Part shown: positions 19,603 to 41,978 of the stretch, piece by piece | Numbering within the stretch: the stretch's first letter is position 1 | How the letters are laid out: each line of letters starts with the position of its first letter | Assembly (NCBI GenBank): GCA_014650475.1 | Contig: BMVA01000019.1 | Location: forward strand, 1-64,000 | DNA length: 64,000 nt | From: Streptomyces albogriseolus | GTDB taxonomy: Bacteria; Actinomycetota; Actinomycetes; Streptomycetales; Streptomycetaceae | Direction: 5' to 3' | Notes under the pieces: generated by a model | Told to the model about the DNA's origin: nothing | Database searches by the model: none | What the model saw: the letters and a program-made list of their open reading frames with translations, nothing else | Program-made: the position numbers and the translations under genes

Positions 19603-22600
19603 TCAGGTACGGGTGCTGCGCGCGTCGCGGTCCGCGAGGGTGCGGGCGATGACGCCGAGGACGTCCGGCCGGGCCAGGCCGGCGTGGTCGGTGTCCAGGG
19701 AGTGCTCCTCGACACGGCCCGTGACATGGGGGCGCCACGAGGCGGGGGTGAGGTCCGGGCGGGTGCGGTCGCGGGTGGCGGCGAAGAACACCAGGTCGCC
19801 GTCGAAGCGGTGCGGGGTGAAGTCCTCGATGAGCCGGGTGTTGTTGAGGAAGACCCGCGTCATCCGGCCGATCGCGGCGTCGTCGAGGTGGGCGAGCGCG
19901 CTGCCGCTCGCGCGCAGGGCGCCGAGCACGGCGGTCCGCTCCAGCGGCCCGTCGCCGAGGGCGGCGCGGTCGGCGCCGGCCGCGTTGAGCAGGAGGGCGA
20001 GGACCTGTTCCTCGCCGACGTCGTGCCGGGTGGTCCCGTCGTAGGCGTCGGGATAGCCGTCGAGCACGGCCAGCAGGCTCACCTCGGCGCCCTCGGCCTG
20101 CAGCCGGGTGGCCACGGCGTGGGCGACGAGTCCGCCGAAGGACCAGCCGAGCAGCTGGTAGGGGCCCCGCGGCGCGGTCTTGCGGATCTGTTCGGCGTAG
20201 TCGCGGGCCATGGCGTGGATGTCGCCGGGCAGCGGTTCGTCGTGGCTGAGGCCGCGGGCCTGCAGGGTGTACAGCGGCTGGTCGCGGTCGGTGTGCCGGA
20301 GCAGCGCCGAGTAGACCCAGCCGAAACCGCCGGCCGGGTGGACGCAGAACAGCGGGGGCCGCCCGCCCCCCGCGCGCAGCGGCAGCACCACGCCGAAGGG
20401 GTCCGGGCCGTCCTCGCCCGCGGTTCCGTCGACGCGGGCGAGCAGCGCGGCGACGGTGGGCGCCTCGAAGAGGGTGCGCACGCCGACGTCGGCCCCGAGG
20501 ACCGTCTTGATCCGGCCGGCGAGGCGGGTGGCGAGCATGGAGTGTCCGCCGAGCTCGAAGAAGTTGTCGTCGATGCCGACGCGGCCGGCGCCGAGCACCT
20601 CGGCGAACAGGTCGCAGAGCAGTTCCTCGCGCGGGTTGCGGGGCAGCCGCCCGCCGCCCGCGCCCCACTCCGGCTCGGGCAGGGCGTCCCGGTCGAGCTT
20701 GCCGTTGGGGGTGACCGGCAGGGAGTCGAGCGTGACGAACGCGGCGGGCACCATGTAGTCGGGCAGGGACCGCTCCAGTTCGGCGCGGAGCCGTGCCGGT
20801 TCCAGGGCGCCGGGCCCGGCGTCGGGCGCGGGGACCAGGTGGGCGACGAGGACGGTGTCGCCGGCCCGTCCGGGGCGCGCGGTGACGACGGCCCGGGTGA
20901 CGTCGGGGTGGGCGGCGAGCGCGGTCTCGATCTCGCCGGGTTCGACGCGGAAGCCGCGTATCTTGACCTGCTGGTCGGCGCGGCCGAGGAACTCCAGGAC
21001 GCCGCCCGTGGTGCGGCGCGCGATGTCGCCGGTGCGGTACATGCGGCCGCCGGTGTCGCCGAAGAGCCCGGCGAACGGGTCGGCCGTGAACCGTTCGGCG
21101 GTGCGCGCGGGCTGGGCCCAGTAGCCGCGGGCCAGGCCGGCGCCCGCGATGTACAGCTCGCCCGGCACACCGGGCGGCACGGGCCGCAGCCGCTCGTCGA
21201 GCACGTAGGCGCGGGTCTCGTCCAGCGGGCGTCCGATGGGCACGGACGCGGGGACCCGGCCGGGGTCGGTGAACCGGTGCCAGGTGCAGCCGAGGGTGAT
21301 CTCGGTGGGCCCGTACAGCACCTTGACGACGGTGCCCGGGCAGGCGGCGAGGACGCGGCGCACGGCGGTGGGCGGGACGACGTCGCCGCCCGTCCACACG
21401 TCGCGCACGCCCGTGAAGACGCCGGGGTCCTCGTCCGCGACGACGCCGAACAGACCCGCGGTCAGCAGCAGGGAGGTGACGCCCTGCTCGGCGAGGACGC
21501 GGCGCAGCACGGCGGCGTCCAGTTCGCCGGGCGGGGCGACGACGATGCGGCCGCCGGCCAGCAGCGGGCTCCACAGTTCGTAGGTGGAGATGTCGAAGGC
21601 GTACGGCGAGTGCATCAGCACCCGGGAGGCGGCGCCGGTCTCCCAGCAGCGGTCGACGGCGAGCGCGACGGCGTCGCGGTGCGTGATGCCGATTCCCTTG
21701 GGGACGCCGGTGGATCCGGAGGTGTACATGATGTAGGCGAGCGCGTCCGGCGGAACGGTGACGTCCGGCGCGGTGGCGTCGCCCGTGGAGGTGTCCTCGT
21801 CGGCGGCGAGGGCCGTCACGCCCAGCCGGGACGCGGCGGCGGCGTGGCGGGCGTCGGTGAGCAGCAGTTCCGCCCCGGTGTCGGCGAGGACGTGCCGCAT
21901 CCGCTCCTCGGGATAGCCCGTGTGCAGCGGCACGTAGACGCCGCCCGCCTTGAGGATCGCGAGGGTGGCGGCCACCAGGTGCGCGGAGCGTTCCTGGAGC
22001 ACGGCGACGGGTGTCTCCGGGGTGACGCCCCGGGCGACGAGCCGGCGGGCCAGCCGGTTGGCCCGGGCGTCGAGTTCGGCATACGTCCAGGTGACGCCGT
22101 CTGGTTCGGTGACGGCGACCGCGTCGGGGGTGCGGGCGGCCTGTTCGGCGAAGCGCCGCGGCAGCGACGCGTCGGCGGCCGTGCGGCCGGGCGCCCAGGA
22201 GGTGTCGTTCCACCCGGTCAGGACGAGGTGGCGTTCGCCGCTCGCGAGGATCGGCACCTCGGCGACCGGCAGGTCGGGGTCGGCGGCGACCGCCCGCAGG
22301 AAGGCCACGAGACGGTCGGTGAGCGCCTCGGCGGTGGTGCGCTCGAACAGGTCGGTGTTGTATTCGAGGACGGCGTCGATGCCTCCGGCCGTGCCGTCGG
22401 GGCCGTGCCGCTCGGCCAGGTTGAAGGTGAGGTCGAACTTGGCGGCGCCGAGGGCGACGACCTCGGGCCGGACGGTGAGGCCGGGCAGGGCGAGGTCGGC
22501 CTCGGGCGTGTTCTGCAAGGCGAGCAGCACCTGGAACAGCGGGTGCCGGGAGAGGGACCGGCCCGGTCCGAGGTCCTCCACCAGCCGGTCGAAGGGCACG

Positions 22601-40100: not shown

Positions 40101-41978
40101 GACGGAGAAGTCGAAGGCGTAGCTGTGGAACAGGGTCCACACGTCGTCGGGGCCGAAGCCGAACAGGGGCCGGGTGGCCGTGAACAGCCGCACCACGTTG
40201 GCGTGCGGGACGACCACGCCCTTGGGACGGCCGGTGGAGCCGGAGGTGTAGATGACGTAGGCCGGGCTCGCCGGGTCCACGGCGACGCCCGGGTCGGTGG
40301 CCGGGCCGCCGTCGTCCGTGCGCATCGCGTCCGCGTCGACGACGGCCACCGGCCGGGCGTCCTCGATCATCCAGGCGAGGCGGTCCTCGGGGTAGTCGGG
40401 GTCGAGCGGCAGGTAGGCGGCGCCGGTCTTCAGCACCGCGAGGAGGGCCACGACCAGGTCGGCGGAGCGCGGCAGGGCGAGGGCGACGGTCCGTTCGGGG
40501 CCGGCGCCCTGCGCGAGGAGCCGGTGCGCCAGCCGGTTGGCGCGGGTGTCGAGTTCGGCGTACGTGAGCCGCTCGGCGCCGTGGGTGACGGCCACGGCGT
40601 CAGGGGTGGCGGCGGCCCGCCGGGCGATCAGGCCGTGCAGGGTGCCGGCCGGGGCGCCGGCGGCGGCCGGACGGGCGGGCGGCGGTCCGTCGGCGGCGTG
40701 CACCCGGGCCAGCGGGGCGGCGGGGTCGGCGGAGGCGAGGCGGTCCAGGAAGCGGGTGAAGCGGCGCAGGTGGCCCTCGGTGGCCGCCTCGTCGTAAAGC
40801 GCCCGGTTGGCCTCGAGACGCAGGCGCAGCCCGGCGCCCTCCTCGTACACCGAGAACTTCAGGTCGTCGACGGGGCCGGTGGACACCGGGTGCACGGTGG
40901 CCCGCAGCGGGCCGAAGTCGGCGGTGTGGTCGTGCCCCGCCACGTTCACCACGGGGCCGGAGGCGTCCTCCCCGACCCGCCCCAGTGCGCGGCGGACCTC
41001 CTCGTAAGGGAAGCGCTGGTGGCGCAGCAGGGGCGCCAGCGCGTCGCGCCCGGCGGCCACCAGGCCGGTGAGCGAGCCGGCGGGACGCGGGGCGAGGTGC
41101 AGCGGCAGGACACCGGCGACGCATCCGACGGCGCGACGGGCGGCGGCGGTGCGGCGGGCCGTCACCGGCAGCCGCAGCGTGACCTCCGGCTGTCCGGTCA
41201 GCCACTGCGCGTACGCCGCGACGGCGGCCGGGAAGGCGGCCTGCCAGCCGGTGTCCGCGGCGGCGGCCAGCCGGGTGAGCCCCTCGCGCACGGCGGCGGG
41301 CAGCAGGACGGTGCGGCGTACGGGGGCCGGCCCGGCCGGGGCGCCACGGCCGGCGAGGGCGACCGGGGCGGGGGGCGGCGCGGCCAGCCAGTGGGCGCGG
41401 TCGGCCGCGTAGGCGTCGGAGGCGCGCCAGGCGCGTTCGGCGTCGACGAGGGCGCGGACGCCGGGGAGGTCCTCGAGCGGTTCCCCCCGGTAGGCGCGGG
41501 CGACCTGCCCGGCCACGAGGCGGAAGGCGTACCCGTCCAGCAGCAGGTGGTGGGCGTGCTGGAACCAGCGGTGACGGTCCGGGGCGAGGGTGATCAGGGC
41601 CTGGGTGTACAGGGGCCTGCCGGAGGTGACGTCGAGCGGGGTGGCGAGGACGCCGTCCATCCAGGCGTCGGCCGCGGCGCCGGGGTCCTCGGCGGCGCTG
41701 ACGTCCACGCGGTGCAGGGTGAACTCGCCGGCCGGGCCCACGTGCTGGTGGACCGTGCCGTCGGGGTCCGTGCCGAAGCGCAGGCGCAGGGCGTCGGTCG
41801 CCTCGGCCACGGTCCGCAGGGCTTCCTCGAAGCGGTCCCGGTCGAGGTCGCCGGCGAGTTCCACGTACTCGCCGGTGTTGAACACGGGACTGAGCGGGTC
41901 CCTCGCCTGCGCGAACCAGATGCCGAGCTGTGCCGCCGTCAGCGGCAGACGCATGTCGTCGGGAACGGGAACGGGCAC
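34188..41978 (-). CDS. snbC: NRPS, C-A-PCP-C-A-PCP-E, first two extension modules (SnbC-type)
   Basis: A 2596-aa synthetase. C1 (~10-420, HHLLLDG ~143) opens with [15 protein letters not shown], as in EntF/DhbF, whose C domains accept an aryl-acid starter from a separate carrier. A1 ([10 protein letters not shown] ~574) has the pocket DFWSVGMVHK, one residue from threonine codes. PCP1 serine ~974; C2 HHVACDG ~1158; A2 (~1643) pocket DTYWWGGTFK, of the small aliphatic/valine type; PCP2 GGDS ~2034; epimerase HHLVVDG ~2239. So it should add L-Thr then a D-aliphatic residue, as SnbC adds Thr and D-aminobutyrate. The start is the GTG at 41978, preceded by GGGGGA at short spacing; the ATG at 41954 has no ribosome site. 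The stop overlaps the next NRPS (ATGA). SARP-like repeats lie upstream at 42045-42073. Confidence 0.94.

What the first reader, a model, noticed from the sequence alone, without database searches (positions are those of the whole stretch)
19603..41978. Two NRPS proteins match a streptogramin B assembly line
Pocket residues read from the sequence give DFWSVGMVHK (Thr-like), DTYWWGGTFK (small aliphatic, followed by an epimerase), DVQYVAHVTK (Pro), DAWAIAAVCK (Phe-like, with embedded N-methyltransferase), DFQFLGVAVK (pipecolate) and DIYLWGLLGK (phenylglycine-like), then a TE. This is residue-for-residue the order of virginiamycin S / pristinamycin I after the aryl starter. Protein lengths (2596 and 4862 aa) are close to those I recall for SnbC and SnbDE.
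Basis: partly seen in the sequence, partly recalled or inferred. Interest (0 to 1): 0.85.

Follow-up and report, generated by a model that had tools for sequence, protein, structure and literature searches.

The report
Pristinamycin-type antibiotic assembly line
These two giant enzymes are close counterparts of the known enzymes that build the peptide half of the antibiotic pristinamycin, carried by a Streptomyces other than the classic producer, so the reading is right but the system is a known one.

Summary
Two overlapping minus-strand genes, 34188-41978 (2596 aa) and 19603-34191 (4862 aa), carry six NRPS modules with the stated pocket residues, an epimerase after module 2, an N-methyltransferase inside A4 and a terminal TE. 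They are orthologues of SnbC and SnbDE: 77% and 78% identical to the proteins of genome G129, taken as S. pristinaespiralis because its lysine cyclodeaminase is 348/348 identical to the solved enzyme. Three of six pockets are identical, and the A domains group module by module. The phenylglycine operon with its MbtH follows, then a SnaD-like NRPS, SnaA/SnaB-like monooxygenases and metK. The same 140-kb contig carries SnbA-, PipA-, P450-, HpaA- and PapA/B/C/M-like genes and PKS/NRPS genes for the pristinamycin II partner. The pap genes point to pristinamycin I (dimethylaminophenylalanine) rather than virginiamycin S (phenylalanine). The host is not S. pristinaespiralis (its own PipA is 76% identical). 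Related loci occur in other Streptomyces. Verdict: correct but ordinary, a further pristinamycin supercluster. No product was measured.

The parts
34188..41978 (-). SnbC orthologue, 2596 aa, C-A(Thr)-T-C-A(Abu)-T-E
   Evidence: 1970/2567 identical to G129
19603..34191 (-). SnbDE orthologue, 4862 aa, C-A(Pro)-T-C-A(aryl-Ala)+N-MT-T-C-A(Pip)-T-C-A(Phg)-T-TE
   Evidence: 3753/4833 identical to G129
18182..19507 (-). PglA, DpgC-family dioxygenase (phenylacetyl-CoA oxidation)
   Evidence: NCBIfam NF042432 510 bits, cut-off 530; DpgC structures 397 bits; 79% to G129
17094..18185 (-). PglB, PDH E1-alpha-like
16069..17097 (-). PglC, PDH E1-beta-like
15248..16099 (-). PglD, thioesterase (PF00975)
   Evidence: 67% to G129
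15033..15251 (-). MbtH-like protein (MbtY), 72 aa
   Evidence: PF03621 91.5 bits, found in ORF; position as in PMC7089894
13720..15036 (-). PglE, class I/II aminotransferase
   Evidence: PF00155; 77% to G129
6371..13600 (-). SnaD orthologue, C-A-T-E-C-T-TE: D-Pro module plus A-less terminal module of pristinamycin II (substrate inferred)
   Evidence: same layout as modules 10 and 11 in PMC10006238; 1886/2394 to G129
5071..6351 (-). SnaA-like FMN-dependent monooxygenase (pristinamycin II tailoring; name recalled)
   Evidence: TIGR03860 489.6 bits; 89% to G129
4217..5074 (-). SnaB-like luciferase-family partner (name recalled)
   Evidence: PF00296; 65% to G129
2959..4167 (-). metK / SAM synthetase
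   Evidence: TIGR01034; 92% to G129
42091..42711 (-). LuxR-family regulator; link to the cluster by position only
   Evidence: PF00196; 69% to G129
42925..43752 (-). 4'-phosphopantetheinyl transferase; link to the cluster by position only
   Evidence: PF01648; 83% to G129

Best explanation
The two genes encode the SnbC and SnbDE orthologues of a pristinamycin-type supercluster in a Streptomyces that is not S. pristinaespiralis. A stand-alone ligase (SnbA-like, on the same contig) loads an aryl acid, by homology 3-hydroxypicolinate. SnbC adds Thr and 2-aminobutyrate and epimerises the latter. SnbDE adds Pro, N-methylated 4-dimethylamino-Phe, pipecolate (oxidised by the P450) and phenylglycine, and the TE closes the ester on Thr to give pristinamycin I or a close analogue. 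SnaD, SnaA/B and the PKS/NRPS genes at 82-123 kb make the synergistic pristinamycin II. Shown: gene order, domain order, pockets, orthology. Inferred: substrates, product and expression.
For: Domain order and pockets. Identity of 76.7% and 77.7% to the G129 proteins, with 3 of 6 nine-residue pockets identical and the others differing at one or two positions. Each of the six SnbC/SnbDE A-domain groups is one side of a branch in the tree; support is starred in 5 of 6 and weak (73/92) for the pipecolate group. Collinear neighbours over the contig. Phg operon with embedded MbtH between the SnbDE and SnaD genes, matching PMC7089894 passages. On C19: lysine cyclodeaminase, aryl-AMP ligase, 4-amino-4-deoxychorismate synthase over its cut-off, chorismate-mutase-family protein over its cut-off, prephenate-dehydrogenase-like protein, P450, DegT-family aminotransferase. 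The precursor gene list for pristinamycin I in PMC6963833 (passages) matches.
Against: No product data. The SnbA-like ligase scores 633.4 bits in TIGR02275, below its cut-off of 723.55; the PglA-like protein scores 510, below the DpgC cut-off of 530. Pockets 1, 3 and 6 differ from G129 (N/S; A/V and M/T; F/Y), and pocket 3 (DVQYVAHVT) differs from the other 5 of 5 loci compared, so altered selectivity is possible. The HpaA-like gene scores best against sugar aminotransferase models, all below cut-off, and PapM rests on generic methyltransferase hits; both names rest on position.
Confidence: 0.93

Rival explanations
1. Virginiamycin S type: module 4 takes plain Phe, as in S. virginiae.
For: The A4 pocket DAWAIAAVC looks Phe-like by eye.
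Against: G129 has the identical A4 pocket. Pap-type genes for DMAPA are on the same contig, and PapA-, PapC- and PapM-like genes have matches of 62% or more in all 6 other genomes compared (PapB was not in that comparison).
Confidence: 0.04
2. The window is simply S. pristinaespiralis, the classic producer.
For: Same gene order.
Against: PipA is 263/347 identical to the solved enzyme, whereas that of G129 is 348/348; the NRPSs are only 77-78% identical to G129.
Confidence: 0.01
3. A streptogramin B congener with an altered residue, because pockets 1, 3 and 6 differ from G129.
For: N/S in pocket 1, A/V and M/T in pocket 3, F/Y in pocket 6; pocket 3 is unlike the other five loci.
Against: Pockets 1 and 6 equal those of G021, G103 and CB01635, so they are common variants; the precursor genes are the standard set.
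Confidence: 0.06

Closest known systems
Pristinamycin supercluster of Streptomyces pristinaespiralis (snbA, snbC, snbDE, pglA-E, papA/B/C/M, pipA, snbF, hpaA, sna genes)
   Same: Same NRPS architecture, near-identical pockets, pgl operon with MbtH between snbDE and snaD, and the same linked precursor and PII genes
   Different: 77-78% NRPS identity. Shorter span from pglA to pipA (about 115 kb against about 175 kb in G129). No paired type II ketosynthase genes on this contig
Virginiamycin S (VisE/VisF) of S. virginiae
   Same: Same peptide order apart from position 4 (recalled)
   Different: Virginiamycin S carries Phe instead of DMAPA (recalled); pap genes are present here; no sequence was compared
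   Same: SnbC/SnbDE/SnaD matches in each; SW4 is nearest (PglA 93%), CB01635 78%
   Different: G021 lacks pglB, pglC and pglD at the locus. In the fetched stretches of CB01635, G103 and G021 the genes at 50.5-70.1 kb have no match above 42%

Membership tests
Pristinamycin I / streptogramin B assembly line | Six modules in two NRPSs, E after module 2, N-MT in module 4, TE at end | tested here: met
Pristinamycin I / streptogramin B assembly line | A domains orthologous to those of SnbC/SnbDE | tested here: met
   pockets; tree (pipecolate group support only 73/92)
Pristinamycin I / streptogramin B assembly line | Phenylglycine operon pglA-E linked to snbDE | tested here: met
Pristinamycin I / streptogramin B assembly line | Lysine cyclodeaminase and P450 for oxo-pipecolate | tested here: met
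   C19:132427-133485, 263/347 to the solved enzyme; P450 at C19:131151-132380, PF00067, 76% to G129
Pristinamycin I / streptogramin B assembly line | 3-hydroxypicolinate ligase and lysine aminotransferase | tested here: inconclusive
   Homologues present and collinear, but the ligase is below the DHB-ligase cut-off and the DegT-family aminotransferase matches only sugar aminotransferase models below cut-off
Pristinamycin I (DMAPA) rather than virginiamycin S | papA, papB, papC, papM | tested here: met
   ADC synthase over cut-off; chorismate mutase family TIGR01803 105 bits, cut-off 73.35; prephenate dehydrogenase and methyltransferase domains. PapC is below the equivalog cut-offs; PapM by position
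Pristinamycin I / streptogramin B assembly line | Produces the cyclic hexadepsipeptide | not testable with these tools
   needs LC-MS
Virginiamycin S VisE/VisF | Sequence orthology to VisE/VisF | not tested
   no named S. virginiae sequence was fetched

The most novel reading that the evidence does not exclude
PglA, a DpgC-family enzyme, may turn phenylacetyl-CoA straight into phenylglyoxylate with release of CoA (as recalled for DpgC), so that the thioesterase PglD is not a pathway step but a proof-reading enzyme. A related cluster (G021) that keeps pglA, mbtH and pglE but has lost pglB, pglC and pglD at the locus would then be a natural minimal phenylglycine operon. The published scheme seen in passages (PMC7089894) instead has benzoylformyl-CoA cleaved by PglD.
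Probability: 0.4. Interest if true: 0.35.

Novelty: new member of a known kind. Interest (0 to 1): 0.2.

Why it matters
It adds a further strain, distinct from S. pristinaespiralis, with a complete-looking pristinamycin I/II supercluster. That is useful for comparing which pocket residues and precursor genes are fixed, and as a possible alternative producer of a last-line antibiotic pair. It does not change the understanding of the class.

Tried and rejected
Rejected: virginiamycin S as the exact product (pap genes present); S. pristinaespiralis as the host (PipA 76%); a need of the NRPS for the aromatic-type genes at 50.5-70.1 kb, because G021, G103 and CB01635 have orthologous SnbC/SnbDE but no match above 42% to those genes in the stretches fetched.

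Led nowhere: an arbitrary 30-base pattern sent only to learn the genome's layout gave no match but told the contig. A text search for the six pocket strings found one paper, holding only DFWSVGMVHK (listing only). The 2011 supercluster paper (PMC3818860) is not held. A search for streptogramin genome-mining papers (listing of 15 of 21) showed none that I could tie to this strain.

Limits: the named genome scan found only 2 loci, works from six short peptide patterns and can miss relatives. The genus survey sampled 392 genomes. Gene names on C19 rest on synteny with G129, family hits and papers read as passages, not on an annotated S. pristinaespiralis record. The pocket table and tree use 6 of the 9 loci known to me (window, G129, G174, G021, G103, CB01635). 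Left out: SW4, whose reading frames are broken; G331, not fetched in full; G023, which has no lysine cyclodeaminase match.

Full report
Observation. The two genes are real and at the stated places. A codon-position GC model gives 34188-41978 (2596 aa) and 19603-34191 (4862 aa), both on the minus strand, with overlapping stop and start. Pfam found 3 condensation-type, 2 AMP-binding and 2 PCP stretches in the first protein and 4 condensation, 4 AMP-binding, 4 PCP, one methyltransferase and one thioesterase in the second. Motif positions give C-A-T-C-A-T-E and C-A-T-C-A(MT)-T-C-A-T-C-A-T-TE.

Surroundings inside the window. Downstream of the second NRPS come a DpgC-family dioxygenase (510 bits against a cut-off of 530), E1-alpha and E1-beta subunits, a thioesterase, an MbtH-like protein (PF03621) and an aminotransferase. 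PMC7089894 (passages) places the pglA-E operon with embedded mbtY between snbDE and snaD in S. pristinaespiralis, which is what is seen here. Its text calls PglA a dioxygenase while its table, and PMC10685826 (passages), call it a dehydrogenase. Next is a third NRPS, C-A-T-E-C-T-TE. PMC10006238 (passages) describes the virginiamycin M line as having an E domain in the Pro module 10 and a module 11 without an A domain, the same layout. Then follow a SnaA/SnaB-like monooxygenase pair and metK (the names SnaA and SnaB are recalled).

Surroundings outside the window. The window is the first 64 kb of a 140,123-base contig, C19. The same contig holds a lysine cyclodeaminase, an aryl-AMP ligase, a 4-amino-4-deoxychorismate synthase over its cut-off, a chorismate-mutase-family protein over its cut-off, prephenate dehydrogenase- and methyltransferase-like genes, a P450 and a DegT-family aminotransferase, and large genes at 82-123 kb with ketosynthase domains, beside a discrete acyltransferase. 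PMC6963833 (passages) lists hpaA, pipA, snbF, papA/B/C/M and pglA-E as the pristinamycin I precursor genes; each has a candidate counterpart here, HpaA and PapM by position rather than by a specific family model.

Comparison with a characterised producer. Genome G129 carries a lysine cyclodeaminase 348/348 identical, over the stretch aligned, to PDB 5gzi. PMC9715595 (passages) says that the S. pristinaespiralis enzyme was crystallised by Ying and Chen and gives its code as 5QZJ, which I take to be a misprint for 5gzj, one of the entries. So I take G129 to be S. pristinaespiralis; this is an inference. The window's own enzyme is 263/347 identical, so the host is another species. The SnbC and SnbDE orthologues are 1970/2567 and 3753/4833 identical to G129. 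Pockets 2, 4 and 5 are identical at the nine positions compared; pocket 1 differs N/S, pocket 3 A/V and M/T, pocket 6 F/Y. Pockets 1 and 6 match those of G021, G103 and CB01635; pocket 3 differs from the other five loci, which share one form. In a tree of 44 A domains from six loci (42 plus two pristinamycin II domains of C19), each of the six SnbC/SnbDE modules forms one group; support is starred for 5 of 6 and 73/92 for the pipecolate module.

Distribution. Of 392 Streptomyces genomes sampled, 65 have a PglA match at E 1e-60 or better. Eight including the window's own are at 60% identity or more: G000, G129, G174, G161, G103, G021, G331 and G023. Of those seven others, six also have a lysine cyclodeaminase match at 72-79% and one (G023) has none at E 1e-50. 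The named scan gave Streptomyces sp. CB01635, which I read as G161 because the match places coincide, and sp. SW4.

Interpretation. The refinement is that pap genes point to pristinamycin I rather than virginiamycin S. Nothing about substrates or product is shown by experiment here. The finding is a further member of a well-known cluster type.

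Noticed in passing
G021:C14:99163-102400 (L074): A related streptogramin locus keeps pglA, mbtH and pglE but lacks pglB, pglC and pglD there. The best PglB match in that whole genome is only 58% identical, the same class as paralogues in G000 and G129; pglC and pglD were looked for only in the fetched 120 kb.
   Followed up: partly
window 50482-64000 and on to about 70100 of contig C19: A segment with SnoaL, NmrA, SDR, TrpD-like, ACP, SNF2-helicase and deoxysugar genes is shared with G129, SW4 and in part G174, but has no match above 42% in the fetched stretches of G021, G103 and CB01635.
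   Followed up: partly
G000:C37:20839-22874 and C37:26053-26790; window 3-1943: A pair of ketosynthase genes (read as KS/CLF) sits inside the supercluster in G129, G174 and CB01635 but not on C19. A pair lies on C37, which ends in a metH C-terminal part, while the window begins in a metH N-terminal part. SW4 has such a pair left of its metH, so C37 and C19 may adjoin; but a second broken metH (C21 and C11) makes the join ambiguous.
   Followed up: partly
SW4 (G393:C3) about 182000-216000: About 35 kb extra with NRPS reading frames between the homologues of C19:70280-71071 and C19:71173-71631.
   Followed up: no
G129:C1 224974 and 8306306: The S. pristinaespiralis-like genome carries pglA, pipA and the ketosynthase genes at both ends of the chromosome in opposite orientation, as in long terminal inverted repeats.
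   Followed up: no
window 3-1943 and 2959-4167: One of two metH copies of the genome and a metK lie beside the cluster, a possible methyl-donor supply.
   Followed up: no
window 43797-48597: Genes for an acyl-CoA dehydrogenase-like protein, a polyketide cyclase, a FAD monooxygenase and an ABM protein lie left of the aromatic-type segment and are kept in G103 and CB01635, which lack that segment; their product is unknown.
   Followed up: no
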